The notes below the pieces were generated by a model, which worked only from the letters and a program-made list of their open reading frames with translations, was not told the DNA's origin and ran no database searches. From IMG/VR virus record IMGVR_UViG_3300006802_020295, positions 1-20,562 of that record: a stretch of DNA of 20,562 bases; one strand, written 5' to 3'. The first letter of the stretch is position 1, and each line of letters begins with the position of its first letter. The stretch is from a virus. The position numbers and the translations under genes were made by a program. Positions 126-20,559 of the stretch are shown here, one piece after another.

Positions 126-824
126 ATGATATTTGCAGAACTTGCATTAGGATCTGGTATATTAGGTGGATTGTTCCAAGGAATTGCTGGGGTTTTTGGA
201 GCAGATAACAGAAACCAGCAGGCAATCAATGCTTGGGTGCAGGGAGAAATGCAAAAAGGAATCAATAATGGAAAAGAGTTGTTCAATGCATCGTATGCGG
301 AAGCCCAACAAAGAGAAAGAAATGCGGCAATACAGAAAGCAGCATACCTATATGAGTCAGATTCTCTTACTGCTCTTGGCAGACAAAAAGAATTTGTTGA
401 TGGTGAAATGAGCAAGAACTATCGACAAATGAAAGGAGCATTAGCAAGAACAATGGCATCATCAAGAATAGCAGGAGGAACATCAAGGGCACTTCAATTG
501 TCTCAGAGTTCTAACTTTTTAAAGCAAGCAATGCAATCGGACCAGAACTTTAAACAAACAGAAGCAAACATCCAAAGACAAATGCAAAACATGATGGCTC
601 AGCAAAGGTTTGATTTAATACTACCAAATCTTCAACTCCCAAGCCAAAAACCAATGTTGGAATCAGGTGGAGCATTGGGAGTTGTCTCTGGAATTCTTGG
701 TGGAACTGCTGCTGGTCTTGGCACATTCGCTCAACTTCATGGAGCAGGACTGTCATCCTATCAAGGTCCGGGAGGAACAGTAACAACTAATGCCGGGCTT
801 CCTTACGGTGAAAGAGGAGGATAA
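126..824 (+). CDS. T7 gp14-like internal virion (ejection) protein
   Basis: The protein has 232 residues, close to T7 gp14 (about 196). What is seen: a hydrophobic Gly/Ala/Leu segment at residues 5-26, a long polar Gln/Ala/Glu-rich helical region at about 30-170 with a conserved-looking ASSRIAGGTSRA turn near 112-123, and a second hydrophobic Gly-rich segment at about 177-202 before a flexible Gly-rich end. This layout, and the position ahead of much larger inner proteins, match the short ejection protein of T7-like phages, which is released with the DNA and forms a pore part in the outer membrane. The homology is inferred from layout, not from a search. There is no cysteine. The start is set by the Shine-Dalgarno site at 112-122. 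The end overlaps the ribosome site of gene B. A P22 gp7-type DNA transfer protein is an alternative family. Confidence 0.8.
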   Translation: MIFAELALGSGILGGLFQGIAGVFGADNRNQQAINAWVQGEMQKGINNGKELFNASYAEAQQRERNAAIQKAAYLYESDSLTALGRQKEFVDGEMSKNYRQMKGALARTMASSRIAGGTSRALQLSQSSNFLKQAMQSDQNFKQTEANIQRQMQNMMAQQRFDLILPNLQLPSQKPMLESGGALGVVSGILGGTAAGLGTFAQLHGAGLSSYQGPGGTVTTNAGLPYGERGG

Positions 825-5857: not shown

Positions 5858-8595
5858 GCATTTACGATTGGCAAAGACTAAAGACACAGCCAACTGAGGC
5901 CGAAAAAAGCAGACAAGAGCAAAACAAAAGGTTGTATGATATTGCAGCCGGAAGAATTGCCGAAGAAACAGAAAGAGACTCAGAAGAGTTTTCAAAGTTC
6001 TTCTCTGATTTAGCAGTTTATTCAACATTCTATGAAAAGAAAGACACTACTACCTATGCACAATATGTAGCAGAAGAAGAAGCAGAAAAAAGATCACAAC
6101 AGGAAAATCAAAAATCAATTGAGTTTATTAATAAAATGATTAAAAGTTCAAGTGGTCTTACTCCAAGAGGAAAGGAATTAAGAGAAGAACTTGGACTAGC
6201 TGCTCCTATTATTGGTATTGATTATGATACTGGTAACATAGGTTATAGAGACATTGACCCAAGGCATGCTCAAGATCTTTTGGCTTACGGGCGAGAAAAC
6301 ATGTTGGCACTTAGTGGAACCGAACAAGCATCTATATACAGAACAAATAGATTGTACACAGCAGGTGGCAACATATTTGGAACACTGGAGGATCAGTTTC
6401 CTGAAATGTTCCCAAAACCAACCCCAGAAGAACAAGCCAATATAGACCGTGCAAAAACCTTTCAAGGATCGTGGGATAGATTGCTTGATGTCATCCCTTT
6501 TGTGGATGGAAGAACAGAAGGTAGTCAAAATGTTGACACCAATTTTATTTTTCTTGAAAATGTTAGAGCATGGTGGGATGAAGGAATATTGCCAACCGAT
6601 TATTTAGGAGGGGCTAAGCAAGAAGGATGGGATGGAAAACAAGCATGGAGGGTTTTATCAGAATACCACCCTGACTTTGCTGCATATCTTACCAGTGTTG
6701 CTGGACTAAATCCAGAAATGCTGGCAAACACCCCAAACCATTGGGAGTTTAGATATATGATTAATGAGTCTATTGATAACTCTAATCTAGCTGCTATTTT
6801 AGAAAATGACAGAAGAGACAGCAGTACTTTAGGATATGCTCTTGATTGGGGTTTAAATTTCCTTAGACAGTCATTTAGATCAGCAGACATGCCGATTGAA
6901 ATAGCATTAACTCTTGCCTCAGTTGGAGTATATGGTGGCATTTCGGGAGCAACTATTGGCGTGCGGGGAGTAAAAGCATTAAGAATGGCTAGTACAATAA
7001 ATGATCAAGTGCAAACACTTAACAACATAAATAGACTAAGTTTGGCAACAAGAAACACCAATAGAATAATTCATGGAGCAAGAACGGCGCAGGCATTAAT
7101 GGTTCCAAGCAATTGGGGAAGCATTGCAACAAGTAGTATTGCAGGCAGAATAATGACTGGTGGATGGGGTCTTGTGGCAGAAGGAGTTAAATGGGGTTCT
7201 GAACTTAATGTAGCACAACGATTCTTATACATGGCTCCAATAGATGCAACACAGGGTCTTGTTGAGGGTTTCTTGTACGGTCTTCAAAACCAATTAACAG
7301 ACAATATGGCATGGAGTGGAGAAAGATTGTGGCAAGAAACCTACTCAGAAGCACTAGGTCAAATTGCTTTTGGGCCTCTATTTAGAACAACAAACCTAAG
7401 TGTTGGTAAGTTATTTGAGGCAGGAAATACTAAAGCACTAGGTCCATTTATTTGGAATGTTGCAACCAGAAAAATAAATCCCAATCTTAAAAGAATGATT
7501 GAGTTCCAAGCACAACTCACAAATAAAGATTTATCTTTAGATCAAATAGAACAAGCATACTTTGGTGCTTACCTTACATTGCATCAACACATTGTGTGGC
7601 AAAACATGACAGATAATACTGATGCAACAATGCCACCACATGTTATGCAAGCCATGGTTGTATTACAGAGTGCTGCAAGACAAAAAGGAATCAATATTGA
7701 TCTTACCTCAATATCCACAGGAGTTCTTGAGTCATTGCCTAAGGATCCAACAACAGGAAAGAACATTGCTCTAGACGAAGAAGAAGCAGCCCTTCTTCTA
7801 TACGGAGCAGTCTTGGATCAAATGAGTGAAAGAGGGTTGACAATAGCAGAATCGGATTGGGATATCGTCAATCGACAAATCGCCATACAATTTTTGGTTG
7901 CAGACAAGATGAAGGAAATGGGTATTTCCGAACAACAGCAAGCACAGATGATGGCTGAAGATCCTGCAAAATATAAAGAGGAAATAAAGAAAGCATATGC
8001 TGATATTCTTTTAGATACAGAAGCAATAAATCAAAGGGTAGAAAGGCTTGCTGAGGTTGGCAAAAGTGCTGTTGCCAAAGCAGGCATAGCCCCACAAATA
8101 AATGTTGTAAACACAACTCAACAAGCAGTTAGCATTATTGATGCATTCAGAACAGATAACGGTGAGTTTGACACCACCCTTATTAAAGAGATTTTTGAAA
8201 ACGCACAAACCGTAGGGCTAAACATAAGTCAAGAAACATTTAATAAAGTTCTTGGGTTTGCCAAAGCAAAAGAAGCACAGGTTGTTGAAGAGGCTGCTGA
8301 GGTTACTCCTGCTGTTGAACAGGAAACTGTTACGGCTCCACAAGAAACTCCAGCCGTTTCTGAGCCACCCTCTAATATTGAGGCTAAACTTGAAATCAAT
8401 CCTGTTGAATCGCCAACATCAGATGCATCTCCAGAAACAGAATCATTGGATCCTCCAATAACAGAAAGTCTAAGTGAAGAGGTTGTTCAGCAACCAACAA
8501 ACCTAGAAGAAACCTTAACCAGTACTGATAATATTGATAGAGAAGAATTCCTAAGAAACCTCAGAGATGATCCTGAGTTTAGAAACTGCCTTTGA
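5854..8595 (+). CDS. Inner virion protein of unknown family with acidic C-terminal tether
   Basis: The protein has 913 residues and no enzyme motif I recognise. What is seen: a charged N-terminal helical region, a Trp-rich central part (GSWDRL, RAWWDEG, KQEGWDGKQAW), a hydrophobic Gly/Ala stretch at about 346-369, a second Gly/Trp-rich stretch at about 418-445, helical regions to about 805, and then an acidic Glu/Pro/Thr/Ser-rich, probably disordered segment at about 810-890. It ends DPEFRNCL, where C912 is its only cysteine. By position between the lysozyme protein and the polymerase giant it is probably co-ejected, and it may match the T7 gp15 role. That is inference from context. The start overlaps the gene B stop (ATGA), with GGAG 8 bases upstream. 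Confidence 0.75.
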   Translation: MSIYDWQRLKTQPTEAEKSRQEQNKRLYDIAAGRIAEETERDSEEFSKFFSDLAVYSTFYEKKDTTTYAQYVAEEEAEKRSQQENQKSIEFINKMIKSSSGLTPRGKELREELGLAAPIIGIDYDTGNIGYRDIDPRHAQDLLAYGRENMLALSGTEQASIYRTNRLYTAGGNIFGTLEDQFPEMFPKPTPEEQANIDRAKTFQGSWDRLLDVIPFVDGRTEGSQNVDTNFIFLENVRAWWDEGILPTDYLGGAKQEGWDGKQAWRVLSEYHPDFAAYLTSVAGLNPEMLANTPNHWEFRYMINESIDNSNLAAILENDRRDSSTLGYALDWGLNFLRQSFRSADMPIEIALTLASVGVYGGISGATIGVRGVKALRMASTINDQVQTLNNINRLSLATRNTNRIIHGARTAQALMVPSNWGSIATSSIAGRIMTGGWGLVAEGVKWGSELNVAQRFLYMAPIDATQGLVEGFLYGLQNQLTDNMAWSGERLWQETYSEALGQIAFGPLFRTTNLSVGKLFEAGNTKALGPFIWNVATRKINPNLKRMIEFQAQLTNKDLSLDQIEQAYFGAYLTLHQHIVWQNMTDNTDATMPPHVMQAMVVLQSAARQKGINIDLTSISTGVLESLPKDPTTGKNIALDEEEAALLLYGAVLDQMSERGLTIAESDWDIVNRQIAIQFLVADKMKEMGISEQQQAQMMAEDPAKYKEEIKKAYADILLDTEAINQRVERLAEVGKSAVAKAGIAPQINVVNTTQQAVSIIDAFRTDNGEFDTTLIKEIFENAQTVGLNISQETFNKVLGFAKAKEAQVVEEAAEVTPAVEQETVTAPQETPAVSEPPSNIEAKLEINPVESPTSDASPETESLDPPITESLSEEVVQQPTNLEETLTSTDNIDREEFLRNLRDDPEFRNCL
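8281..8523 (+). other. Acidic low-complexity tether (residues 810-890 of gene C)
   Basis: The segment is dominated by Glu, Pro, Thr, Ser and Val (for example VTPAVEQETVTAPQETP), with almost no basic residues and no predicted secondary structure by eye. It separates the folded part of protein C from a short C-terminal helix and the terminal cysteine, so it would act as a flexible arm. Confidence 0.7.
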
Positions 8596-8596
8596 T

Positions 8597-8602
8597 AAGG
8601 AG
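8597..8602 (+). promoter_or_regulatory. Shine-Dalgarno site for gene D
   Basis: AAGGAG lies immediately after the gene C stop codon (8593-8595) and 5 bases before ATG 8608. It fixes the start of the giant protein at MNPC, which matters because the cysteine at residue 4 would be lost with any later start. Confidence 0.85.
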
Positions 8603-8607
8603 AAATA

Positions 8608-11600
8608 ATGAATCCATGTTCACCAGAAATACTTGCAAAGATTCTTGATAAGAGAAGAACACAACTTCAATCCAAGGGTTTGTCTGAATCACAAATTAAA
8701 ACAGATTTGGACCACCTTAAAGAGATGCTTGCAAATCCAACTGGTTACTCCCAACTGGTTCAAAAAGTTCTCAATGTAAAGAGAGGATTCTCTGAAACAG
8801 AACAGAACGAGTTTAATGAACTAAAAGCAAGGCTCATGGATGGATTTGAAAAGGGAAAGACAAAGGCAGAAGACATTCTAGGTGAATCAGATGCTCGCAA
8901 GTTCAAGATCCTATTATACAAGAGCGTATCAGGAGACAGGGCAGCACAGATTGGAAACCAAGGAGCCCCAACAAACATAATTGATGTGCTTGCCCAGCGT
9001 GAAAAAGAATTAACAGAAGCAGGAAACATTAGAGGTGCTAGAAGAATGCGACTCATCAGAAAAAAGATGGAACGCATTGACAAACAGAACACAAGACTTG
9101 GAAGAGACTATAAGAAGATAAAGGAACTGGATGATGAACTAAGAAGCATCGAAGAATCTCTTATATCATACAAGACTCTTTTAGAAGAAAGCACTGAAGG
9201 AATTACTGAAGAAACAAACAAGGTAAAAGAAAAGATAAGTAATATTTCAGAAAGACAGGCAAAACTAGGTCAATCTTTAGAAGCAATCAATAATAAAATT
9301 GACTCCGCAGACAAGGCTCAACAAAGAAAGTTGAAGAAAGAGGCTGCTAATATAAACAAACTATTGGATAAGTTGAAAAAAGAAAAACTTAGAACCATAG
9401 AAACACTTAAAGAACGCCTTGATAAACTAACAGAAAAAGCCAAAGAATCTCCAATGGGCAAGGCAATAGTCAAGTTGGAAAGAGAAAGAAAACTTCTCAT
9501 CTCGGAACTTTCCAAGTTCGGCGTAAACAGAGCCGTCGCCATCAACAACATTATTGACAACGCCCCGGCAACTGGACGACAACTGGCTATGCAACTTGAT
9601 GAGGTGTCAAAGGATATTGAATTCAAAACTCAGGTAATTGACAATCTATTCAAGGAATCAAACACGATTGATGCTGTTGTAGTGGGCAAACTATTTGGCG
9701 ACAACTTTGTAATGCAAAGAGTAGAAAAAAACAAACCATTGACTAAAAAAGATGTTGATAAGTTATTCTCTGAATACAAAGCACTTGCTTTTGAGTATGC
9801 TGGATCTAGAGAACGATTTATCATGGATATGGAGTTTTCTGACAAGGCGTCATTAAAAGAGATCTCTGAAACATCTATTGATCCAGAGACCGAGGGAGCC
9901 ACCATTGAAGAGGCAGACGGTGACTATCCTATTGTCCCAACCCTTACAATGAAAGAGGTTGGTGTTCTATCCAATCCGGGAATCATACCGCCAGAAAACC
10001 TGTTCTCTGAAAATGAAGGTGAAGTACTATATGGAAAACTAAGATCTTTGTTATACAGACTTGAGACACTAAGACGACTTCCTCAATTTGGTAAGTTTGT
10101 CGATGTTGCTTTTGTAAGCAAGATCATGAGTGAGATTGAAAAACTAGACGATGTTGATCCATCAATCCTTTTCAAGAGTGCTATTCAATGGGATAGAGGC
10201 AATACAAGAAACGCACACTTATCTCATGCTGAAATGGTTTCAATTGCAAAAAGCGTTCTTATGGATCTTGGTATTGATGAAACAGTGTTCAGTTCAAGAG
10301 AGTTCACAGATCCGGTCAAATGGGCAGAGACTGCTTCGGTGTTTTCCTTTGATATTGAAACACACCTAGACAACCAAGGAGGAATCCATACTATCATCCT
10401 CATGGATGATGTCAATACTGAAAACTATGAGTCTGTGCGATCAAGCAGCGATGGTAATCTATTTACCACAGAAGAGTTGATGAATGTTCTTGTTGAAATT
10501 GAAGACATGCAAAACCAAGGGAAGTTGCTTGCAACCTTCAATGGAAATGGATTTGATCTTCTTGCAATGGCAGAGACCATAGGAACCCCAGAAGCACGGC
10601 AACTTGCCGCTAGAATTGTGTTCCGAAGTGTTGACATCTTCCAAAACCTAAGGGCATTTGACAGCACAACAAACACTGACCCAACTCCAAAAAGCAAGAT
10701 GTATAGCCTAGGAAACACAGCAGATGCTCTTAACTTGCTGGAAAGCAAGGTGGGAGGAAGCCATATGCCGACTCTATGGAAGAAGAGATCAATGGGCAGA
10801 ACGATCACTATCCAAGACCTGTCCAAAATAGACAACTCAAAGATCAGCGAAGGCGAGAAAGAAGTAATTGTAGATGAGGTAAATGCTTTGAGAGAGTCAG
10901 ATGCTGCAAGACTTCTTTATGAGTATTCAATGGCTGATGGAAGACTTACTATCAAAACCCTTAATGAACTCAGGCAAAGAGATGGAGCATCTGTTAGAAT
11001 AAGGAACGCAGATGGAAACATCTACTCAGTGGCAATCAAACCAGCCATACCAACTTGGAGCCTTGCTTCATATCAATCGCCTATTTTTGGTGGCGTTGAA
11101 GATGCTGTGTCTAACTGGGAAGCACTTCCTGAAGGAAGGCAAATGGCAACGGCATTTGATGGAGTTCTTCCTAGAGATGGATCAGCAAAGACTGTCATTG
11201 ATCTGGACAAGGCACAGCCAATCATTATGTCATTGATGGCTATTGCACTTGAGCATTCTCCAAACACAAGATCGTTTGGCAAGGCAATGCTGGATCTTGC
11301 CCAACGAGGAGTTACGCCAGAAGAGCAGGCATACCTGACTGCAATAAACATTGCACAGGAAAACTCAAATGCTTCATCTAAGATCAACAAAGCCGCTTAT
11401 GAAAAAGCAGGCAACAGGTTGCCTCTTGGTATTCGAGGAACCAACCAAACGGGAGGGAAGATTCCCGGAATCAACTTTGCTGAAGGAAACCCAGAGTCAC
11501 AAAGAAACCAATACATAAATGCAGTTACTGAAGGTGCCCTTGACCAAATCAAAAGCCTAAGACTAACTCTTTCAGATCTAGCAGAGATTGTTGATTACGT

Positions 11601-14600
11601 TCCTAAGGATAGTGTGCAATCAGAAAGAGATTATGTCTTTAATCTTATTGTCCATACAATCAAGAAATACTCCAGTCACAAGGATTTTGACATTGCTGAT
11701 TTTGGAAACGGAAACATTGACTTTGCAATTGGAGATAGCCTAGGCAGAGGCGTCATTCAAATCATAACAAGAACCCCACAAGGATTCAGAAAGTCACTTC
11801 ATTCTGAGGCAGTAATAAAGAAGGGGACGGATGTGACGCGGGCTGAGGAGATTGCTAAGGCATCAGAACCCGCCCATAGAGTAAACATGTCAATGGTTTA
11901 TAGACTTCCTATCCTAAGCGAGGTCAACCACATCTTCCCAAGATCATTGACTGAGGTTGAATACGCATACAAGGATTATAGACTAAGACAAAGAATCTCT
12001 CATATTCTAAACTCACCTATTGCAAGCAAAGAAGAAGCAACTGAAATAATCAATTCTTACATGAATCAGAGGGAGAATCCTGATGAGGTTATTTCAGAAA
12101 CAAGTGAGTTGACTCTGCAACTGCTTCCAAATGTTAACAATAGAGGCATGTTTGATAAACTTGCTAACATGGTGGAGTACAGAAGAAGGGCTATTGAGGC
12201 ACTACTTGATCTTCCTGAACTGCTCATGATGTGGCAGCACGACTCGGTTACATATGCTCCCGGATCAAAGATATTTATGAGTGAAAAAACCAAAGGAAGA
12301 GTCTTTGCTCAGGATGCATTATCTCCGGGGTCTCTATCAGGAGCGTCTCTCTTATCTGGATTAGGTCCAATGTTTGCACATGTCATGACCTATCCAATAC
12401 TAACAACTGATCTTGTTTACAAGTCACTTGAAAGAGGAATTGCTGCTTATAAGGATGGGGGATATAGCCTTAGCAATTACTTTGACTTCAACATGAACGG
12501 TGTTCACCATATGGCTGCGTTGACTTTAATGTATATGGATGAAGACGGATCTGCTTTAGATCGAATGCTTGAAGAGGTTGGATTTGTAGACAAGCCGGAA
12601 GATAGGTATCAAAAAGCAGTTGATATACTACTAGACAATCTTGATAGAATCAAGATGGCATACATTACAAATGGCGACCAAAGGAATGCTGAACAAGCAG
12701 ATAAGTTAAAAGAATTCCTAACAACAGGAGATGCAAGAGATGCATTCAAGACCGCAGTAATTGCCAGACTTTACATGGGTGGATTGAAGGCAGTTTATGA
12801 AGGCATTAGAGACTGGTCGTATGATACTGGGAACAACATGAATGGTGTTGATGCTAAGTTTATTGCAGAACACCTCATGAATGCAAAGTCATTTATTCAA
12901 TTCAACATACTTGACTCTGCAATTGGAAACCTAAACGATGCTGGGCGAAGAAAACTATCTGAAAAAATTGCAAATGAACTAAGAGAAACGTATTCATCAA
13001 CAGGATGGCACACTAGACTTAGAAAAATTGCCACTAAGAATGGATTTACAAATGCTGGCAAAAGCATGTTCTCTCTTAACCAAGTGGAAGAAGCAATCAA
13101 AGAAAGAATCAGATTTATCGCAACAATGGAAAGAAGAACAGAAGAAGAAGTTGCAAAATCATACGAGAAAAGAATCAATGCTGCAACTGATTATATGAAG
13201 AAGATAGGAGGAAAGATTTCTAATGATGAGCAAATGCGAGAACTCAACATCATTCTTATGGGCAACGAAGAAGCATACAAAACAACTCCTGTTCTGATTG
13301 CGCTCAATGCCTTGCAAAGAACTCCTTATAGACTAAGAGGCACAGAGTCTGAGGGAATTAGAGGAAGAGTGGAAGAGCATGCCATGCTTATGGGAAGGGA
13401 TCTGGAAGTATCGGATCTCCTTGGGTTTGAAGACTTTAACATTTATTTCCTTATGGGTCTTGATTCAAGCGGTGGGCGTATTTACATGCACGGGCACAGG
13501 CACCAGCCATTGAACTCCAAACTATCTTCCATTGTGAGAGAAAACACACCAGATATGAAAGATGATAACCCATATGCCATGTGGGAATTTGGTCGAAACA
13601 ATCTTGGTCAATTGGGAAGAGAAGAAGCAGAAGCAGAAATTGAAAAACTGATTGCAAGACATATTGCCGTGCAACTGTCAAAAACCTATGAGCCAAAGTT
13701 TGGAAACTATTCAGCCGACTCTGAGAACAGAGAAGGATTCATGGAAGAGTGGTTGAGAAAGTCTGAAAGAGCAAATCGTGCATGGAAGAGCGGAATCTTA
13801 GAAGAGGCTACTCTTCCTGATAATCTCCGTAACTTAAGAAGAAGCAATGGCGGTCTTCTCAGGGATTCAGCAAGATTCCTTCTCGACCCATCACGAAACA
13901 TGAGCGATGCCCTTCAAGCACAATACAATCCCGGTTCCAACCTAAAGGGATTGTTGGCATTCTCCGCACCTTACTCAGACATACCATGGGAAGAAAGAGG
14001 AATCTTTTCTCTTCAAGAAATGTTCTACAACCGGGAATTGGAAGAGACAAGAAAGACAAGGGCAAAAAGACCAGAACGAGAAATCCCATCAGTCAATGAT
14101 GTAATCCCAAGAGAAGCAAGAGGATACAAGAACAGATACAAGGGATCCAAGGCACCCTACATATATGAAACGCCATTTGACTCTACATATGAGATGACAA
14201 CCGGAAGTTCAACAAGAAGAATTGAACTAAGAGCAAATAACCTTATGCATGTCCTTGAAAAGTTTGCTGAATCAAGCGGCTACTTAGATATTCTCCAATC
14301 AGGAGATATTGCTAAACTATTCACCATTTGGAAGATGACAAACTCAATTGTGAATCCATTCCTCAGAAAGATGGAGAAACTAAAACTGAAAGGTGGAACA
14401 ATTGAAGAGCAGTCTGAGTATAGAGATGCACAAGCAAATGTATTGACCATGTATCAAGGCTTGACCAATCTATGGTCATTCCATGATGATGTGTCCCATG
14501 AGTCAAGAAGTTACCTTGAGTTTGGGAAAATGATAGGAATTGACGGGAAGAAGATCAAGGGGATGTACTACATCGACTTCCTTCTTTATCTTGCAAAGCA

Positions 14601-17600
14601 AGGCATTGATAGCCTAAGTCCACTGACTCTTGGACTAAGCCCAACCAATAACCTTCTTGCAACTGGAGATCCAGCAGCAGACAATAGAGACACAAGGATC
14701 CTTACCCTTACTGTCCAAAGCCTTGACTCATTGCAGGTAATCTTTAACGTCTTGTATGAAGTTGTTGGCAGGGAAATAGCAACCAATTACATGAAGAGAG
14801 TTGACCCAGACAACTTTGATTCATTGGAAAAAGACAGCAATGGTTTTGTCTTGTTGAGTTCCGTTCCCATTGAATACCAAAGATCAATCCTAAATGAGAT
14901 CTTCAAGTCTGAAAAAATAAGAACAGATAGTCAATTTGATTTATATCTGTTCCTTGATGACTTTGGAAGAATGCAGATTGGAAACAGATTTGATTATGAA
15001 AACTTCATGGAAGCAAGGATAGACACATCTACTGGCAAGGCACCAAAAGTCAGATCTGGAGGTTTTATCAGATTTGACACATCAAGAACACAAGCCAATG
15101 CTGTATACCACTTGACTCCAGAAGACATTAGAAACATGTTTACCCAGATCCAGAACCAAGTGTTCTTCAACAATGCGGAAATTGCAGCAGCACTTGGGTC
15201 CGAGGTCGGTGTTGCAACCAATGAAAACATGAAATTCATGAATGCGGAAAGACGCAAGTTTTACGAGATGCAAAGGCTTGCCTATGCCGATGAAATGGAC
15301 ATACTTGCCTTGCTTCACCAAAGAGCAGGAACAAAGTTAAGAACAACCAACAACACACAAAGGCGTGGAGACTATGGTCTTCCCTTGGAAGTGTACGATG
15401 CCAGATATTATGTAGCCGGTGAGGATGGAGACCCTAGAGGAACTGCATTTGACATGGCTTGGGGAGCAAAGATTAATCAAGCAATTAAACTTGCAGACAT
15501 GTATGGTCTTGAAGAAGAAGGGATTCAACTTAGATCCCTTCTTAGCCTAGATGACAAGTACATGGTTCCTGCGGTAATTCTTCTTGCACAGGTTGATGGT
15601 CAGAATGTCATCTCATCAAAGAAAAGGCTTCGTGCATATGTGGGAGACATCATGGATGACAAAGAACTCAATAGCTTGTACTCAACAGCCAGAGGATTCA
15701 CAGAAGCATACCTGTCAGCCGTTAGTCGAGACGAGATAAGGAACCCATACTTCCATGCTGCCAAGAGATATGTGGAACTCAACGGACCAATTGCGGATAT
15801 CCCCAATGTTCTTAACAGAGTTCTTAGCAGCATTGGAGTCACCGACATCACCAACCTAAAGGAAGTGACCAAGGCAAAGAAAGCACTGGACAGAGCCAAT
15901 CAACAATATAATCCAGATATCAGGCTTATGGATGAGGATGTTCTTGCTTTGGCAGAAGAGGATGGATTGACCAATGCCTTTGGAATTGACGGACAGAAAA
16001 TTGAAATCGTCATACAGGATCTCGTCAATCAAGGAGCAATATCAGAAGAAACCGCTGAACTATACAAGGGAATGCTTGGAATCATCCTTACGCATAATGA
16101 GGAGTTTGCCAACAACCTATCCATAATCCTTGATCCAAACATGGAAAGAGCAGGCAAATCTTTGCAGATTGGGGATAGATTTGTAGTCAAGTTAAATCCA
16201 GAGTTGCTTAAGAAGAGAGCATCGCTAGAAGCACTAGATGTCTTTGCACACGAAATCTCCCACATTGCAAGAATGCAGCACCTTGAGACAGATGGCGAAG
16301 TGTATCAGGGATTCCTGACTGCATTCAGAACCAACTCTGGCAAGAACGCAATAACCGATATGGTGTCAGCCATGTTTGCCGGTGATCGCAGTGAAATCGG
16401 TCTGTTGATCGAACACTACACCTCAAACCCAGAAGAGTTCCTTGCCGAATGGGGATCATTCATTCTGATCTCCAAGACAATCAACAACAAAAATGTCATC
16501 AACAACATAAGAAAACTAAGAGATAAGCATGTTGTTGCAGACGAGTCGGCAAGTTGGTGGGAAAGAGCCTTCAACAGAATCAAGAGAATGGCTTCCACGG
16601 TTGTCCAAAGAATGCAAGTTTTTAGGAACCAGAACCCAGAAGCCATGAAACTCATGGATGATGCGATTGAAGTCATGTTCAATTTTGGAAATACCTACAG
16701 CAAATCTAGGGCACTTGCGGAAATATCCACAAGATCTTTCTCGTATCCTTTGACGGAACTTCCAAAGGGATCTTCGTTGTTGACTGAGGGAGACATTCAA
16801 ACACTTCATTACAAAATAGATCTTAGAAGACAACTTGAAAACGGAGGAACTTTGAGCGAAGATAAGATTGCAACCCTTGCTTCGCTTGTGGATGAAACCG
16901 AAGAATACATCTCAGGATCAAAATCAAGAACTGTTCTTGGACAACCAACCGAAGACTATTTAAAATATATGAATGAAATGATTGGAATGGAAGAGGGAAC
17001 CATAAAGGTAAGCAGACAACCAAGAACAAAGGCACAAGAAATAGCATTGGCTACCTTTGTCCTTGAAAAGGTTGCAACTTTGAGAGGAAGGAGAGGCGGT
17101 GAACTTGCCAGCATTGCCAAGATCATCAGCGATATGCCAAACAAAAGCACAAGAGTCAAGCAATGGCTCACTGACTTTTTGTATTATGGGTCTTCAAGAA
17201 AAATAGGAGAGGCTGGAATTGGCGGGGTATATGGCATGGGTGGAGGAAACAGTTCAAACATAACATATGCATCATCGGAACCAATCCTAGCATCCCTTGG
17301 TTTTATCCTAGATGCTACAAAAGGATCGGGGCAAAACGTATATGGCGGCGCGGTTGGTGGAGTACTGCAAGGATTGAACTATATTCAACAATGGTCAAGA
17401 GCTGTGATACGAAACTCGGACAGAATCAGAAACACCTACAAAAACAAAGAGGCTATCATAATTGAGAGAAGTGCATTTGATTATCTTCTATATGATCGAC
17501 CAGAAAAAAAGGAATCCTTGCCTCTTGGTCACAAACTAACTGATCAGATGTTTGAAGAAGCAAAGAAGCACGCTGAACTGTATGCAGCAAACATGCAAAA

Positions 17601-20559
17601 CTTTGTGGATGTGGCACAGAAGTATGGAACTTACACAAAATCACTAATTCCACCAAAAGACATGCTTGCCTTGAGAGTAAACAACACATATTTTGAAAAG
17701 ACAACAGCAGAAACAATCTCAACCTTTACAGATGCCTTGACAAAAGCATATAAGAGCAAGATTTTGGCAAACATGAGACAAAACGGAACCGCAGATTCCT
17801 ATTCCATTTACCTTAGCGGTGGGATGTTCCAAATTGAGGGTGAAATACAAACAGATAAGGGAACCATTTCCTCAATCCAACAATTTTATTACACAATAAA
17901 TGAAAATATAGGTGGATCAAAGGTTCTTACTCAAGGTCAACGATTGATTTTGGATGAGATTGAGGAATATGCTGCAACACTTTGGGCGGAAGAAAGACCA
18001 AATGCCAAGCAAGCAAAGGCAAATTTCAAGGCTAAGTTGAAAAACTCACCATATAGTTCAGATTTCAAGGATGTTGAACCATATTTGAGAGATGCTGCAA
18101 TAAGATTGCTAAGAAAAGCCAAGGCTGGCGCCACTTACAAGGAAGTGTTCAAGTCACTTGAGTCTTCTAAACTAGATATTGTGATCAATGAGTTGAAAAA
18201 CAGGATTGACACAAGCGATAGAACATCAATCAGTCTTGCAACAGACATTTTGGATGGTCGCTTGCCCTCTGTTTTCCCCGGATCTTCATCTCCACCATCA
18301 TATATGCGTGGATCTTTAGAGCAAGTGGGCTATTCCGTGGCTTCATTGCATGCGAGAAAACATCTTATGACCCAAGGTCACAGCACAACTATGCCGGATT
18401 CCTCTTCATTAGACCTTACAGCAAAGGACATTTTCTTAGAAAACAATGGATTGACCCCAGAGCAAGGAAGAATCCTAAGAGAAGGCTTTACAATAGACCT
18501 TAGATCCATCATTGTAGGCATGGAAAGGAATATGGCAAGGTCCGCATATAACAATAAAGCAATCCAAGACCTTACTGGAGTCGAAGGAGTATCCTTCTCT
18601 TGGCTAATCAATGCAATTTCAAAGGCAAAAACAGATAGTGATTGGGATATTGTACTTAAAGAAGTAAAGAGAAAACATGATCTTGCTATTGGTGCTGCTA
18701 CAGTCATTGATGAAAGAGAAGGCTCGGGCACGGAAAACATGGCTGTTAAGGTGGCAGATGCATTCACAACTGCCCTTTGGGGAGGAAACAGAAATGCTGC
18801 AACTCTTCTCAATGAGGGAACACTAAGCGCAGCCACCTCAGTTATGTTTGGAGGAAACACCATTTCGCTTTACAAAGATCTTTTAACTGGCATGGCTGGT
18901 TTGTTTATAAATGTTTTCAGTAGAAAATATGGAAATAGACTCCTTAACTCATCTTTTTGGTTAACGGCTGTAGATGGACTATTTGATACAGACAGCGCAA
19001 CAAAGGGCATCATGGAACATCATCTTGTCGATTATGATGAAATGCCATTTGATGTTAGAGAAAGACTAAGAATGAATCAAAAAAATCCCATTAACTCTGG
19101 AATTTCAGATTTTTGGAAAAGACTTAAAGACTCACATCTTATTGCAGAGCCGGCATTAAGAGTTGCGCTTATGCGCCAAGGTCAAAGGCAATTGCTCAAA
19201 AGACTTGGGAAAATGGACTCTTATCTTGAATTCATTGAGAATTACGAGGGACCAAAAAACCAAGAGATGTATGAAAACGCCATAAGAGAACTTGGAGCAG
19301 AAAGAATCTTAGACTTTGCAGGGACGGAAAAGGTTCTGCTCCAACTTATGTGGGAGTCTGGTGTGTTGACAAAAAAAAACATTGAGGCTATCAAATATAT
19401 AGTCAAGAGATTTGGAACATCTAAGCAAGGATTCACAAGACGAGAGTTTCTTGATATTGGGAATATCCAAATCAAGATGGAAACAGAACTTAAGAGAAAG
19501 TTGTGGGAAGAAATTCCTGAGTCCAATGGATTAATTAAAAATGATATTTATGAGGCGTTGGCTGCAATAGGAAGATTCCAAAAGGCATATGCAAGGCAGT
19601 CAATTGTAGAAGGCAATACATTGGATAGACCCACAAAGGGAGACCCAAGATCCTTCCTCTTCAATCTTTATCGATCCTTCCCCAAACTGTTCGTTACGCA
19701 ATTTGCACTTGAGACCTATGGAAGAACAACACCTATGCTTCTGGCAGGTCGCCTTATTATTGCTGCTGCTATGGATGTCTTATACAACTTTGCACTTATG
19801 CTTGTTGCTGGAGCAATATCATATGATGATTTTGAACGAATTGCAAAAGGAGACATCAATGGAGATGATGTTACCAAAATTCTGTCGGTTGTGGCAAGGA
19901 ACCCCCTCATTTCCAATAGAATGTTGACCGGAACACTCGCACAACTTGCCATCATTGGCGGAAGCAGCATTGCAACAGGAAAGAATCAGTTCACAAATCC
20001 AAATATACTAGCCGCAGCTATTCCTCCAGCAGGAATGGCTGTAGCATCTGGGATCTCAAGAGCCGGAAGAATCACGCATGATGCCATCAATGGTGATGGC
20101 AACTTTGATTCCGCAGCGTTAGCGGATCTCTTTTTAAGGATAATCCCAGCCATCGGACCTACCGTTCGATATGGCATAACACGATCAATAGATCCCAATT
20201 ACGGAAAGAAAGGGAAGTCAAGGTCTCAATCCAATGGATCTGCATTCAGCCCAGTATCCGTGGCAAACCATATCATGGATCAGGAAAGCATGGATGAGTA
20301 CAAACTAATAAGAGACCTACTTAAGGAACTGTTTCCAACAGGGTATAACAACCTAACAACATCAATACCACCCTTCCTAGATGCTCAGATTCCCTCTGTT
20401 CAAGCGGCTCAGCCTCAGGCTACCCAGACACCCCCAGCACCACAAAGCCCAGCACAGGGCATTTCCGTGCCTCCTGCGGCAAATCAACCACAACAGACCC
20501 CAGCCCCTCCCCAATCTGGATCTAGGGCTACAACACCAGCCACACCCCCCAATATTTAA
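8608..20559 (+). CDS. Giant virion protein: exonuclease, N4/T7-type RNA polymerase and metallopeptidase
   Basis: The protein has 3983 residues, longer than N4 virion RNA polymerase gp50 (about 3500). Order of parts: coiled coil 132-302; DEDDy exonuclease about 572-800; single-subunit RNA polymerase motifs about 1190-1640; a long helical region without a recognised domain; gluzincin motif 2548-2614; further helical regions; hydrophobic segments about 3715-3815; Pro/Gln-rich tail 3925-3983. The likely role is injection with the genome, followed by transcription of early genes as for N4. The exonuclease could remove RNA or DNA 3' ends, and the peptidase could trim virion proteins. These roles are inference. 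C4 is the only cysteine. It may also be viewed as a phage polyvalent protein, a class of giant multi-domain proteins thought to enter with DNA. The CDS is secure. The polymerase call rests on motifs read by eye, and motif C is uncertain. Confidence 0.85.
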   Translation: MNPCSPEILAKILDKRRTQLQSKGLSESQIKTDLDHLKEMLANPTGYSQLVQKVLNVKRGFSETEQNEFNELKARLMDGFEKGKTKAEDILGESDARKFKILLYKSVSGDRAAQIGNQGAPTNIIDVLAQREKELTEAGNIRGARRMRLIRKKMERIDKQNTRLGRDYKKIKELDDELRSIEESLISYKTLLEESTEGITEETNKVKEKISNISERQAKLGQSLEAINNKIDSADKAQQRKLKKEAANINKLLDKLKKEKLRTIETLKERLDKLTEKAKESPMGKAIVKLERERKLLISELSKFGVNRAVAINNIIDNAPATGRQLAMQLDEVSKDIEFKTQVIDNLFKESNTIDAVVVGKLFGDNFVMQRVEKNKPLTKKDVDKLFSEYKALAFEYAGSRERFIMDMEFSDKASLKEISETSIDPETEGATIEEADGDYPIVPTLTMKEVGVLSNPGIIPPENLFSENEGEVLYGKLRSLLYRLETLRRLPQFGKFVDVAFVSKIMSEIEKLDDVDPSILFKSAIQWDRGNTRNAHLSHAEMVSIAKSVLMDLGIDETVFSSREFTDPVKWAETASVFSFDIETHLDNQGGIHTIILMDDVNTENYESVRSSSDGNLFTTEELMNVLVEIEDMQNQGKLLATFNGNGFDLLAMAETIGTPEARQLAARIVFRSVDIFQNLRAFDSTTNTDPTPKSKMYSLGNTADALNLLESKVGGSHMPTLWKKRSMGRTITIQDLSKIDNSKISEGEKEVIVDEVNALRESDAARLLYEYSMADGRLTIKTLNELRQRDGASVRIRNADGNIYSVAIKPAIPTWSLASYQSPIFGGVEDAVSNWEALPEGRQMATAFDGVLPRDGSAKTVIDLDKAQPIIMSLMAIALEHSPNTRSFGKAMLDLAQRGVTPEEQAYLTAINIAQENSNASSKINKAAYEKAGNRLPLGIRGTNQTGGKIPGINFAEGNPESQRNQYINAVTEGALDQIKSLRLTLSDLAEIVDYVPKDSVQSERDYVFNLIVHTIKKYSSHKDFDIADFGNGNIDFAIGDSLGRGVIQIITRTPQGFRKSLHSEAVIKKGTDVTRAEEIAKASEPAHRVNMSMVYRLPILSEVNHIFPRSLTEVEYAYKDYRLRQRISHILNSPIASKEEATEIINSYMNQRENPDEVISETSELTLQLLPNVNNRGMFDKLANMVEYRRRAIEALLDLPELLMMWQHDSVTYAPGSKIFMSEKTKGRVFAQDALSPGSLSGASLLSGLGPMFAHVMTYPILTTDLVYKSLERGIAAYKDGGYSLSNYFDFNMNGVHHMAALTLMYMDEDGSALDRMLEEVGFVDKPEDRYQKAVDILLDNLDRIKMAYITNGDQRNAEQADKLKEFLTTGDARDAFKTAVIARLYMGGLKAVYEGIRDWSYDTGNNMNGVDAKFIAEHLMNAKSFIQFNILDSAIGNLNDAGRRKLSEKIANELRETYSSTGWHTRLRKIATKNGFTNAGKSMFSLNQVEEAIKERIRFIATMERRTEEEVAKSYEKRINAATDYMKKIGGKISNDEQMRELNIILMGNEEAYKTTPVLIALNALQRTPYRLRGTESEGIRGRVEEHAMLMGRDLEVSDLLGFEDFNIYFLMGLDSSGGRIYMHGHRHQPLNSKLSSIVRENTPDMKDDNPYAMWEFGRNNLGQLGREEAEAEIEKLIARHIAVQLSKTYEPKFGNYSADSENREGFMEEWLRKSERANRAWKSGILEEATLPDNLRNLRRSNGGLLRDSARFLLDPSRNMSDALQAQYNPGSNLKGLLAFSAPYSDIPWEERGIFSLQEMFYNRELEETRKTRAKRPEREIPSVNDVIPREARGYKNRYKGSKAPYIYETPFDSTYEMTTGSSTRRIELRANNLMHVLEKFAESSGYLDILQSGDIAKLFTIWKMTNSIVNPFLRKMEKLKLKGGTIEEQSEYRDAQANVLTMYQGLTNLWSFHDDVSHESRSYLEFGKMIGIDGKKIKGMYYIDFLLYLAKQGIDSLSPLTLGLSPTNNLLATGDPAADNRDTRILTLTVQSLDSLQVIFNVLYEVVGREIATNYMKRVDPDNFDSLEKDSNGFVLLSSVPIEYQRSILNEIFKSEKIRTDSQFDLYLFLDDFGRMQIGNRFDYENFMEARIDTSTGKAPKVRSGGFIRFDTSRTQANAVYHLTPEDIRNMFTQIQNQVFFNNAEIAAALGSEVGVATNENMKFMNAERRKFYEMQRLAYADEMDILALLHQRAGTKLRTTNNTQRRGDYGLPLEVYDARYYVAGEDGDPRGTAFDMAWGAKINQAIKLADMYGLEEEGIQLRSLLSLDDKYMVPAVILLAQVDGQNVISSKKRLRAYVGDIMDDKELNSLYSTARGFTEAYLSAVSRDEIRNPYFHAAKRYVELNGPIADIPNVLNRVLSSIGVTDITNLKEVTKAKKALDRANQQYNPDIRLMDEDVLALAEEDGLTNAFGIDGQKIEIVIQDLVNQGAISEETAELYKGMLGIILTHNEEFANNLSIILDPNMERAGKSLQIGDRFVVKLNPELLKKRASLEALDVFAHEISHIARMQHLETDGEVYQGFLTAFRTNSGKNAITDMVSAMFAGDRSEIGLLIEHYTSNPEEFLAEWGSFILISKTINNKNVINNIRKLRDKHVVADESASWWERAFNRIKRMASTVVQRMQVFRNQNPEAMKLMDDAIEVMFNFGNTYSKSRALAEISTRSFSYPLTELPKGSSLLTEGDIQTLHYKIDLRRQLENGGTLSEDKIATLASLVDETEEYISGSKSRTVLGQPTEDYLKYMNEMIGMEEGTIKVSRQPRTKAQEIALATFVLEKVATLRGRRGGELASIAKIISDMPNKSTRVKQWLTDFLYYGSSRKIGEAGIGGVYGMGGGNSSNITYASSEPILASLGFILDATKGSGQNVYGGAVGGVLQGLNYIQQWSRAVIRNSDRIRNTYKNKEAIIIERSAFDYLLYDRPEKKESLPLGHKLTDQMFEEAKKHAELYAANMQNFVDVAQKYGTYTKSLIPPKDMLALRVNNTYFEKTTAETISTFTDALTKAYKSKILANMRQNGTADSYSIYLSGGMFQIEGEIQTDKGTISSIQQFYYTINENIGGSKVLTQGQRLILDEIEEYAATLWAEERPNAKQAKANFKAKLKNSPYSSDFKDVEPYLRDAAIRLLRKAKAGATYKEVFKSLESSKLDIVINELKNRIDTSDRTSISLATDILDGRLPSVFPGSSSPPSYMRGSLEQVGYSVASLHARKHLMTQGHSTTMPDSSSLDLTAKDIFLENNGLTPEQGRILREGFTIDLRSIIVGMERNMARSAYNNKAIQDLTGVEGVSFSWLINAISKAKTDSDWDIVLKEVKRKHDLAIGAATVIDEREGSGTENMAVKVADAFTTALWGGNRNAATLLNEGTLSAATSVMFGGNTISLYKDLLTGMAGLFINVFSRKYGNRLLNSSFWLTAVDGLFDTDSATKGIMEHHLVDYDEMPFDVRERLRMNQKNPINSGISDFWKRLKDSHLIAEPALRVALMRQGQRQLLKRLGKMDSYLEFIENYEGPKNQEMYENAIRELGAERILDFAGTEKVLLQLMWESGVLTKKNIEAIKYIVKRFGTSKQGFTRREFLDIGNIQIKMETELKRKLWEEIPESNGLIKNDIYEALAAIGRFQKAYARQSIVEGNTLDRPTKGDPRSFLFNLYRSFPKLFVTQFALETYGRTTPMLLAGRLIIAAAMDVLYNFALMLVAGAISYDDFERIAKGDINGDDVTKILSVVARNPLISNRMLTGTLAQLAIIGGSSIATGKNQFTNPNILAAAIPPAGMAVASGISRAGRITHDAINGDGNFDSAALADLFLRIIPAIGPTVRYGITRSIDPNYGKKGKSRSQSNGSAFSPVSVANHIMDQESMDEYKLIRDLLKELFPTGYNNLTTSIPPFLDAQIPSVQAAQPQATQTPPAPQSPAQGISVPPAANQPQQTPAPPQSGSRATTPATPPNI
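9001..9513 (+). other. Long coiled-coil region (residues about 132-302 of gene D)
   Basis: Nearly continuous Lys/Glu/Leu-rich helix with heptad-like spacing of Leu and Ile and almost no Pro or Gly for some 150 residues, for example KKLEKLKK-like patterns around 250-290. It is likely an elongated rod or oligomerisation element, and a shape that can unravel for ejection. Phase and oligomer state cannot be given by eye. Confidence 0.75.
10321..11007 (+). other. DEDDy (DnaQ-like) 3'-5' exonuclease domain (residues about 572-800 of gene D)
   Basis: Exo I is FDIET with D582 and E584, the form found in family B DNA polymerase exonucleases. Exo II is NGNGFDL with D650. Exo III is YSMAD with Y773 and D777, the YxxxD form of the DEDDy group. 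Between II and III lies MYSLGNTADALNLLESK, like the SL..vA..lL...K helix common before Exo III. All four metal-binding acids and the tyrosine are present, so activity is likely. The closest groups by eye are PolB-type or YprB-type exonucleases. The substrate (DNA or RNA) cannot be told from sequence. Confidence 0.82.
12181..13527 (+). other. T7/N4-type single-subunit RNA polymerase core (residues about 1192-1640 of gene D)
   Basis: GR motif: KTKGRVFA with R1231, against T7 DWRGRVYA. Motif A: FDFNMNGVHHMAAL with D1293, against T7 FDGSCSGIQHFSAM. G1298 is in the place of T7 G542, where DNA polymerases of family A carry a glutamate. Motif B: R1377, K1381 and Y1389 in RDAFKTAVIARLYMGG, with the spacing of T7 R627, K631, Y639. 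I1385 stands where T7 RNAP has M635 and DNA polymerases have Phe or Tyr. Motif A to B distance is 84 (T7 90). The GR to A distance is only 62 (T7 112), so a subregion seems missing. Motif C: best colinear candidate D1619, 28 residues after H1591, equal to T7 H784-D812, but the usual HD is LD. Confidence 0.78.
16105..16527 (+). other. Gluzincin metallopeptidase domain (residues about 2500-2640 of gene D)
   Basis: HEISH gives zinc ligands H2548 and H2552 and catalytic E2549, preceded by a helix (LEALDVFA). The third ligand is probably E2610 in NPEEFLAEWGSF, which aligns with NEAEFFAEAF of anthrax lethal factor, where E735 binds zinc. The spacing from the second His to this Glu is 58 (45 in lethal factor). 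Such peptidases also occur in phage polyvalent proteins. Possible roles are self-processing or cleavage of another virion or host protein. The target is unknown. Confidence 0.75.
19732..20052 (+). other. Hydrophobic, possibly membrane-active segments near the C-terminus of gene D
   Basis: Residues about 3716-3737 (LIIAAAMDVLYNFALMLVAG) form a strongly hydrophobic helix with one Asp and one Asn. Two weaker Ala/Gly-rich stretches follow at about 3775-3788 and 3799-3816. Such segments would be unusual in a soluble enzyme but are expected in ejection proteins that contact the inner membrane. An alternative is burial inside the packaged core. Confidence 0.55.
20380..20556 (+). other. Pro/Gln/Ala-rich low-complexity tail (residues 3925-3983 of gene D)
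   Basis: About 59 residues made mostly of Pro, Gln, Ala, Ser and Thr (for example QATQTPPAPQSPAQG), ending PATPPNI. It is probably disordered and could serve as a flexible leader or anchor during packaging or ejection. No signal or motif is recognised in it. Confidence 0.75.

What the first reader, a model, noticed from the sequence alone, without database searches (positions are those of the whole stretch)
12181..13527. A T7/N4-like RNA polymerase core hidden in the middle of a 3983-residue virion protein
Motif A (D1293, with G1298 and HHMAA following as in T7 GIQHFSA) and motif B (R1377-x3-K1381-x7-Y1389) match single-subunit RNA polymerases in residues and spacing, and a GRVFA motif precedes them. 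Gly in place of the steric-gate Glu and Ile in place of Phe/Tyr favour RNA over DNA synthesis. The central position in a giant protein of an ejection module is the N4 gp50 layout, but the neighbours (gp14-like and lysozyme protein) are not N4-like. This may be a divergent class of virion RNA polymerase.
Basis: partly seen in the sequence, partly recalled or inferred. Interest (0 to 1): 0.88.

Follow-up and report, generated by a model that had tools for sequence, protein, structure and literature searches.

The report
Rearranged RNA polymerase in phage protein
A giant phage protein, probably injected into the host with the DNA, contains the building blocks of a T7-type RNA polymerase joined in an unusual order, which would be a new version of the rare 'virion RNA polymerase' known from phage N4 if it is active.

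Summary
The 3983-aa protein (8608-20559 +) has relatives in six IMG/VR contigs (five distinct proteins); D1293, G1298, R1377, K1381 and Y1389 are invariant in all six proteins including the window's. Residues 1280-1420 match single-subunit RNA polymerases by profile: T7-like 38.5, N4-like 35.3, each above 100 of 100 shuffles; three DNA polymerases A of these phages give nothing. Two low-confidence AlphaFold models have mitochondrial RNA polymerases as top match for about 1331-1430.

GRVFA is not conserved. An HExxH motif follows at 2548 and an exonuclease-like domain precedes, a layout that recalls N4 gp50.

Not settled: motif C (candidates WQHDS 1209-1213, without profile support, and D1619), the palm, activity, presence in the virion. 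A separate short RNA polymerase gene lies 0.9-2.0 kb downstream in the five contigs that reach it, so the embedded core might be inactive. Best reading: a permuted, N4-like virion RNA polymerase.

The parts
8608..20559 (+). giant ejection-module protein, 3983 aa, with the embedded polymerase core
   Evidence: open frames of relatives, stop to stop: L003 3995, L004/L005 3950, L010 3992, L016 4034 residues; L002 is cut at its contig end
10348..10953 (+). 3'-5' exonuclease-like RNase H fold domain (about residues 581-782: DIE, FNGNGFD, SVD, YSMAD)
   Evidence: Pfam RNase_H_2 PF13482, E 8.6e-5 in the whole protein; 6 of 6 family members match, best E 1.2e-11; DNA_pol_B_exo2 in 2 of 6
12232..12246 (+). 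WQHDS, residues 1209-1213: candidate motif C, placed before motif A (unproven)
   Evidence: H1211 and D1212 invariant in 6 of 6; one of two invariant HD dipeptides in the protein. T7-like C block aligns there but 7 of 100 shuffles score as high; N4-like C block scores above 100 of 100 shuffles for 1180-1250 but at 1183-1202, not at the HD
12466..12834 (+). motif A to motif B region (residues 1287-1409)
   Evidence: hhalign 38.5 vs shuffles 14.4+-2.1; N4-like 35.3 vs 14.7+-2.1; model part 1331-1431 matches mitochondrial RNAPs, Z 10.1/9.8/8.3
12484..12519 (+). motif A DFNMNGVHHMAA, D1293
12736..12774 (+). motif B R1377-x3-K1381-x7-Y1389
13279..13341 (+). ALN segment (KTTPVLIALNALQRTPYRLRG, residues 1558-1578), which in T7-like RNAPs lies before DxxGR and motif A
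   Evidence: best T7 window against the whole protein; z 11.8, 0 of 100; shown beside 15 ssRNAPs
13435..13527 (+). DxxGR-like segment (FNIYFLMGLDSSGGRIY...QPLNSKL, residues 1610-1640); alternative label motif C
   Evidence: N4-like DxxGR z 6.1, 0 of 100; T7-like DxxGR z 3.0, 1 of 100; T7-like motif C z 3.5, 0 of 100; N4-like C z 0.5, 28 of 100
16249..16263 (+). HExxH (residues 2548-2552), zincin-like motif downstream of the core
   Evidence: H2548, E2549, H2552 invariant in 6 of 6; N4-like HExxH block best at 2544-2582, 20.6 vs next 14.2; but 3 of 100 shuffles as high, and the same region scores 20.1 (3 of 100) against the unrelated N4 RNAP part
126..824 (+). gp14-like internal virion protein (neighbour)
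   Evidence: Pfam T7_gp14 E 0.012, below its cut-off
827..5857 (+).
   Evidence: PHROG 37474 (unknown function) E 1.1e-6 at 1564-1653; no Pfam family over its cut-off; no PDB match at E 0.1 for the piece 5444-5800
5854..8595 (+). 913-aa neighbour of unknown function
   Evidence: no confident family

Best explanation
The protein is a giant internal virion (ejection) protein that carries an embedded single-subunit RNA polymerase of the T7/N4 superfamily whose chain order is permuted: motif A and the region to motif B come first, and the ALN and DxxGR-like segments, which elsewhere come before motif A, come after. Proposed action, as for N4 gp50: it is packaged, ejected with the first DNA, and transcribes the first phage genes, possibly including the phage's own T7-like RNA polymerase gene. 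Shown by computation: the homologous segments A-B and ALN, their conservation, their order; DxxGR with less certainty. Inferred: that a palm assembles in three dimensions, that D1293 pairs with a motif C carboxylate (best candidate D1212), virion location, early transcription. The break between DxxGR and motif A is where N4 RNAPII is naturally split into two subunits (PMC4496689, passages), so a fusion of such halves in reverse order is a possible origin (inference).
For: A-B region: 0 of 100 shuffles as high vs T7-like and vs N4-like; no match to three DNA polymerases A (81 of 100 shuffles as high). ALN z 11.8 and motif A z 11.5. ALN is the only pair above the maximum of 60 shuffles in an all-against-all window scan. 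DxxGR z 6.1 vs N4-like, z 3.0 vs T7-like. By hhalign no ALN or DxxGR match above noise upstream of A, and nothing above null in 1640-2200. Same order in the window and six contigs (five distinct relatives). Control: in N4 gp50 the same blocks have their best places at 1322-1358 (ALN) and 1655-1686 (B), i.e. T7 order, with low scores of 16.3 and 22.0. Model part 1331-1431: top three of 977 chains are mitochondrial RNAPs; top of 969 is POLRMT in the other model. Layout recalls N4 gp50 (PMC12633501, section 5 and passages).
Against: Motif C not found by profile (1100-1285: 21 of 100 shuffles as high; 1150-1285: 23 of 100). D1619 matches T7-like motif C about as well as T7-like DxxGR. No alignment bridged both blocks, and the order test did not separate orders. 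The N4-like motif A block does not find D1293. N4-like A-B has weak further places at 1850-1917 and 3729-3754 (21-23 vs 36). Both AlphaFold models poor; Foldseek nothing at E 0.001. Pfam RNA_pol does not match the protein. A separate short RNAP gene with intact motifs lies downstream.
Confidence: 0.55

Rival explanations
1. Pseudo-polymerase: the segments descend from a single-subunit RNAP, but the rearranged domain no longer polymerises; it keeps a DNA-binding or structural role in ejection, and the short RNAP encoded downstream, or host RNAP, transcribes early genes.
For: No profile support for motif C. Short RNAP genes of 575-596 aa with DxxxR, motif A Asp, motif B R/K/Y and HDS lie downstream in 5 of 5 contigs that extend far enough, 4 distinct proteins. 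The exonuclease motif is already degraded in L004/L005 (DIE to GLE), so domains of this protein can decay.
Against: D1293, R1377, K1381, Y1389, D1619 and R1624 are invariant in six proteins down to 35% identity; the motif A stretch NGVHHMAA is among the best conserved 8-mers of the whole protein.
Confidence: 0.26
2. Canonical order: D1619 is motif C (A-B-C as in T7), the T/DxxGR element is degenerate before motif A, and the ALN-like stretch is a coincidence or an insertion.
For: The best 13-column match of T7-like motif C in the protein is 1613-1625, z 5.1; L010 reads GHDTFGERFY there; T7-like C block 0 of 100 shuffles; second-best ungapped DxxGR place is 1231-1257, before motif A.
Against: N4-like C gives nothing at D1619 (28 of 100) but N4-like DxxGR gives z 6.1; R1624 and Y1626 are invariant and the following QPQNSKL of L003 recalls N4 NPQSAKL by eye; Gly-Arg at 1231 is in 2 of 6 proteins; ALN, z 11.8, would remain unexplained.
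Confidence: 0.12
3. DNA polymerase with a proofreading exonuclease: the exonuclease-like domain at 581-782 and the polymerase core form a family A-like DNA polymerase.
For: Exonuclease-like domain some 500 residues before a polymerase core.
Against: No profile match of the core to three DNA polymerases A of these phages; Gly, not Glu, at the steric-gate position (position recalled, not aligned here); ALN is shared with RNAPs; 3 of 7 records already encode a DNA polymerase A.
Confidence: 0.04
4. No polymerase at all; chance motifs in a helical structural protein.
For: Poor AlphaFold models; no Foldseek hit at E 0.001.
Against: 0 of 100 shuffles for separate blocks, against two RNAP families for A-B and against T7-like for A and ALN.
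Confidence: 0.03

Closest known systems
N4 gp50 virion RNA polymerase (Schitoviridae)
   Same: Giant protein (N4 3500 aa) with an ssRNAP core in the first half or so, HExxH after the core and a large C-terminal part (PMC12633501, section 5 and passages); B and DxxGR segments match by profile.
   Different: Order of segments (ALN and DxxGR-like after B); exonuclease-like domain before the core; phages that also carry a full-size T7-like RNAP where the record is long enough (3 of 7 records); motif A closer to T7-like; C not identified; relatedness of the HExxH part not specific.
T7-type single-subunit RNA polymerases
   Same: Motif A, motif B, ALN and, less surely, DxxGR segments.
   Different: Embedded in a 3983-aa protein; permuted; N-terminal, palm-insertion, B-to-C and C-terminal blocks not detectable.
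N4 RNAPII gp15/gp16 (split ssRNAP)
   Same: The break lies between DxxGR and motif A, like the junction here (PMC4496689, passages read).
   Different: Two separate chains there; here one chain with the halves in reverse order.
Permuted-palm RdRps of birnaviruses and permutotetraviruses
   Same: Right-hand polymerases with motif C before motif A (C-A-B) exist with an active site compatible with the canonical one (PMC4666646, passages read); the candidate HD here would also precede A.
   Different: RNA-dependent polymerases of RNA viruses; there motif C is 17 residues before the motif A Asp (D352, D369), here 81.
P23-45 gp96 tail-tape-fused virion RNAP
   Same: RNAP fused into a giant virion protein, with a second, non-virion RNAP gene in the same phage (PMC10770324, abstract in listing and passages).
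   Different: Two-barrel RNAP homologous to cellular RNAPs, not an ssRNAP of T7 type.

Membership tests
single-subunit (T7-like) RNA polymerase | motif A with catalytic Asp | tested here: met
   D1293 invariant; T7-like A block z 11.5, 0 of 100; N4-like A block no match (51 of 100)
single-subunit (T7-like) RNA polymerase | motif B R-x3-K-x7-Y | tested here: met
   invariant; A-B profile 0 of 100 vs T7-like and N4-like
single-subunit (T7-like) RNA polymerase | motif C with second catalytic Asp (HD) | tested here: inconclusive
   candidates D1212 (7 of 100 shuffles as high) and D1619 (ambiguous with DxxGR); the C-end block did not find the true place in N4 gp50 either
single-subunit (T7-like) RNA polymerase | T/DxxGR element | tested here: inconclusive
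   D1619-x2-G-x-R, one residue more than the consensus; hhalign N4-like z 6.1, T7-like z 3.0, but T7-like C z 3.5 at the same place; ungapped N4-like ranks 2 and 21
single-subunit (T7-like) RNA polymerase | order ALN - T/DxxGR - A - B - C in the chain | tested here: not met
   ALN match (z 11.8) lies after B in all six proteins; so it is not filed as an ordinary member
single-subunit (T7-like) RNA polymerase | right-hand fold | tested here: inconclusive
   only a part of low-confidence models resembles mitochondrial RNAPs
N4-like virion RNA polymerase | giant protein with ssRNAP core followed by an HExxH motif | tested here: met
   HExxH invariant in 6 of 6 after the core; this shows the layout, not descent
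N4-like virion RNA polymerase | sequence relatedness over the HExxH domain and C-terminal part | tested here: inconclusive
   HExxH region 21.5, 3 of 100, and 20.1, 3 of 100, against the N4 RNAP part as well; 3300-3500 vs N4-like C-terminus 23.6, 0 of 100, shuffle maximum 23.4; no tblastn hit among 50,697 phage records for residues 501-3983
N4-like virion RNA polymerase | packaged in the virion and active on ssDNA templates | not testable with these tools
   needs proteomics and transcription assays
family A DNA polymerase | profile relatedness of the polymerase core | tested here: inconclusive
   81, 53 and 83 of 100 shuffles as high for 1280-1420, 1495-1660 and 1150-1285, but the profile holds only three close sequences

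The most novel reading that the evidence does not exclude
A working DNA-dependent RNA polymerase of the T7/N4 superfamily with a fully rearranged core (C - A - B - ALN - DxxGR), carried in a 3983-residue ejection protein together with a proofreading-type exonuclease domain, serving as a third RNA polymerase in a T7-like phage that also encodes a full-size and a short ssRNAP. The searches made here found no earlier permuted member of this superfamily.
Probability: 0.35. Interest if true: 0.93.

Novelty: new variant of a known kind. Interest (0 to 1): 0.8.

Why it matters
Virion RNA polymerases let a phage start transcription without the host enzyme; those met in the papers seen here are the N4-like ssRNAPs and two-barrel enzymes in giant proteins (P23-45; crAss-like phages by abstract listing). 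A permuted ssRNAP core would show that this superfamily tolerates the kind of chain rearrangement described for birna- and permutotetravirus polymerases, and would test which connections the T7-type fold needs. It would also make a T7-like phage with three RNA polymerases, one probably injected.

Tried and rejected
AlphaFold: both jobs used (residues 800-1895 and 1090-1720, six sequences each); mean pLDDT 42.1 and 49.0, no palm, so neither D1212 nor D1619 could be placed. Foldseek against PDB: 107 matches at E 10, none at E 0.001. VIA-align looked only at Foldseek's first 1000 chains; its note warns that Z under about 13 may be fortuitous for helical parts. I considered adding fragments of the short RNAP to the second job and dropped it: motif A of the fragments was misaligned and the model would have been hypothesis-laden.

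GRVFA as T/DxxGR: rejected, Gly-Arg in 2 of 6 proteins, though an ungapped scan ranks 1231-1257 second for DxxGR. D1436 (LDSAIG) as motif C: rejected, only 47 residues after Y1389 and in a predicted helix of the poor model. HDD near 1959 as motif C: Asp not conserved in L010 and L016. 'KAPYIYETPFDS' 1847-1884, a weak hhalign hit to an RNAP stretch between B and C: region 1640-1950 not above null (33 of 100). Tandem duplication of two decayed polymerases: no second copy above null by T7-like blocks, weak N4-like A-B places at 1850-1917. Misassembly: same order in the window and six contigs.

Order test: blocks joined in eight orders gave 35.9-38.0 (T7-like) and 35.0-35.1 (N4-like), no discrimination, because no local alignment bridged the gap between the two segments. 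In the window scan several pairs that I hold for chance scored between ALN and motif A (T7 214-234 vs 1943-1963, Z 4.5, and others); only ALN exceeded all 60 shuffle maxima, DxxGR (Z 4.3) and motif A (Z 3.1) did not.

Relatives: 8 of 8 viral scans and 2 of 2 genome scans used; new contigs came, none in the last three scans; none confirmed in genome contigs. tblastn against phages: none for window residues 501-3983 or L010; three Streptomyces phage hits at E 0.7 for L016, taken as chance. Literature (open-access library only; listings and abstract starts): 'permuted' + 'single-subunit RNA polymerase' + 'phage', six papers that did not bear on this; 'circular permutation' + T7 RNA polymerase + palm, none; 'permuted' + 'phage RNA polymerase' + palm + fingers, none. 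Polyvalent-protein paper PMC5512222: passages on RNA polymerase only.
Full report
What was checked. The window is a 20,562-base virus record with four large forward genes: a gp14-like protein (126-824), a 1676-aa protein (827-5857), a 913-aa protein (5854-8595) and a 3983-aa protein (8608-20559). Over its cut-off, Pfam finds only an RNase H-fold domain in the giant (PF13482, E 8.6e-5, residues 581-725) and no polymerase; PDB sequence searches find nothing of note.

Relatives. Eight scans of IMG/VR gave six contigs with five distinct proteins besides the window's, at 81, 66, 54, 37 and 35% identity over residues 800-1895; L004 and L005 encode the same protein. No relative was confirmed in GTDB genome contigs and none of note in 50,697 phage records. 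The alignment is thin (six rows; Neff 2.3). This limits every profile and structure result below.

Motifs. NGVHHMAA is among the best-conserved 8-mers of the protein, along with LYRSFP, the HExxH stretch and SWW-RAF.

Are they polymerase motifs? I compared the six-row profile with two families: 15 T7-like RNAPs (3 full-size and 4 short ones from the same phages, T7, and 7 other phages) and 9 N4-like virion RNAPs. Giant 1280-1420 scores 38.5 against T7-like (100 column shuffles: 14.4 +- 2.1, maximum 21.2) and 35.3 against N4-like (14.7 +- 2.1, maximum 24.4). Against three DNA polymerases A of the same phages it scores 12.3, below its shuffle mean of 14.0. Without preselection, the A-to-B block of T7-like RNAPs has its best place among 32 windows of the giant at about 1290-1411 (37.8; best unrelated 21.7). 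The second AlphaFold model is poor overall (pLDDT 49.0), but blocks of ten in 1330-1430 have pLDDT 54-86, and its best structural matches among 977 chains are yeast and human mitochondrial RNAPs (8c5u Z 10.1, 87 residues, 2.8 A; 8att 9.8; 7pzp 8.3; next, unrelated, 6.5). That these chain ranges are the fingers with motif B is recalled. The tool warns that Z under about 13 can be fortuitous for helical parts; what counts is that the top rows are the predicted family. I take residues 1287-1409 to be descended from a single-subunit RNAP with high confidence.

Permutation. In T7-like RNAPs the segment called ALN here (T7 from 319) and DxxGR (T7 421) precede motif A (T7 537). In the giant the ALN match is at 1558-1578 and the DxxGR-like match at 1610-1640, after motif B. 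ALN: best T7 window against the whole protein, Z 5.28 against 60 shuffles whose overall maximum was 5.18; hhalign 29.4, best unrelated window 14.5; z 11.8, 0 of 100; N4-like ALN z 2.6, 1 of 100. By eye, TTPALAALNALQRVPYRL (L003) stands beside ETPLAFLNKIQKVAFRL (S-CBP1) and EPVKAAMNKAQSVPYRI (APK44). DxxGR: N4-like z 6.1, 0 of 100; T7-like z 3.0, 1 of 100; giant 1499-1639 aligns with N4 about 1314-1445 (26.4, next unrelated 17.7). The 52 residues from the ALN Asn to D1619 are close to the 50-56 of the short RNAPs of the same phages and unlike the 100 of T7 and the full-size ones (positions). By hhalign there is no ALN or DxxGR match above noise upstream of motif A and nothing above null in 1640-2200. 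In N4 gp50 the same search has its best places for ALN at 1322-1358 and for B at 1655-1686, the T7 order, with low scores.

What speaks against. The D1619 site also resembles motif C (T7-like C z 3.5; L010 reads HDTFG), and by ungapped short windows C is the better T7-like label (z 5.1 against 4.2). If D1619 were C, A-B-C would be canonical and only ALN displaced. Comparison of block orders did not discriminate. The N4-like motif A block does not recognise D1293.

Motif C. None found by profile. The invariant WQHDS/WNHDA at 1209-1213 holds one of two invariant HD dipeptides of the protein and aligns to the right residues of T7-like motif C, but 7 of 100 shuffles score as high; N4-like C scores above all 100 shuffles for 1180-1250 but at 1183-1202, off the HD. 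The C-end block also misses the true place in N4 gp50, a known enzyme, so the gap is not proof of loss. If it is C, the order is C-A-B-ALN-DxxGR; C-A-B palms exist in birna- and permutotetravirus polymerases (PMC4666646, passages).

Setting. A 67-kb relative encodes a full-size T7-like RNAP and a DNA polymerase A; that its other large genes are T7-like structural genes is read from size, position and sequence starts, not tested. In the seven records, full-size RNAPs (809-811 aa) and DNA polymerase A occur in the same three; the other four are shorter. In the five contigs that extend far enough, a second, short ssRNAP gene (575-596 aa) lies 0.9-2.0 kb downstream of the giant gene with its catalytic residues in place; the window and L003 end too early to tell. 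The giant, with HExxH after the core and a large C-terminus, recalls N4 gp50, whose RNAP is 1007-2101, C1 with HExxH 2124-2375 and C2 to 3500 (PMC12633501, section 5 and passages). Profile support for descent of the HExxH part is modest and not specific (best place 20.6 vs 14.2; 3 of 100 shuffles, and the same 3 of 100 against the N4 RNAP part). The exonuclease-like domain (6 of 6 members match RNase_H_2) has no match in the N4 N-terminus (90 of 100 shuffles as high) and a short one to the phages' DNA polymerase A (11 columns, 2 of 100); in L004/L005 its first catalytic Asp is gone.

How it most likely works. By analogy with N4 and P23-45 (PMC4496689, PMC10770324; passages), the protein would be ejected with the DNA and transcribe the first genes. 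Shown: A-B and ALN homology, conservation, order. Less sure: DxxGR. Inferred: fold, activity, virion location, role. N4 RNAPII is split into gp15 (N-terminus, thumb, DxxGR) and gp16 (A, B, C) at the junction broken here, so reverse-order fusion of two such halves would make A-B-(C)-ALN-DxxGR; this predicts C between B and ALN, where I found none, and is only a suggestion.

Verdict. A real and unusual find: an ssRNAP-derived core, permuted with good but not final support, in a giant ejection protein of N4-like layout. As a defining feature of ssRNAPs (segment order) was tested and not met, I file it as a new variant, not as an ordinary member. A dead polymerase is the main rival.

Noticed in passing
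L002:13269-15026, L004:19800-21587, L005:19800-21587, L011:20990-22714, L018:15820-17583 (+): A separate short single-subunit RNA polymerase gene (575-596 aa; Pfam RNA_pol E 3e-9 to 9e-16 for the four distinct proteins; motifs in place) lies 0.9-2.0 kb downstream of the giant gene in 5 of 5 contigs that extend far enough.
   Followed up: partly
L004/L005 giant, position of window residue 582: The exonuclease motif DIE reads GLE, so the exonuclease-like domain has probably lost catalysis in one branch while the rest of the protein is kept.
   Followed up: no
window 20401-20556 (residues about 3932-3983): Pro/Gln/Ala-rich tail ending in RATTPATPPNI; L010 ends near RATNPATPPP and L016 near ATTPITPPEG, possibly a shared packaging or ejection signal.
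   Followed up: no
window 18505-19107 (residues 3300-3500): Weak profile similarity to the C-terminal part of N4-like vRNAPs (23.6, 0 of 100 shuffles, shuffle maximum 23.4; also 3378-3417 vs N4 about 3153-3191).
   Followed up: partly
window 11692-11754 (residues about 1029-1049): A conserved stretch before the core (DFGNGNIDFAIGDSLGRG in the window; D-GNG--D-A invariant, GRG not in L016), of unknown role.
   Followed up: no
L067 (Enterobacter phage SonariX, 248,734-base record), 1068-11939: A 3623-aa N4-like virion RNA polymerase homologue annotated only as hypothetical protein, with HExxH and motifs A, B and C in place in the alignment, in a jumbo-size record.
   Followed up: no
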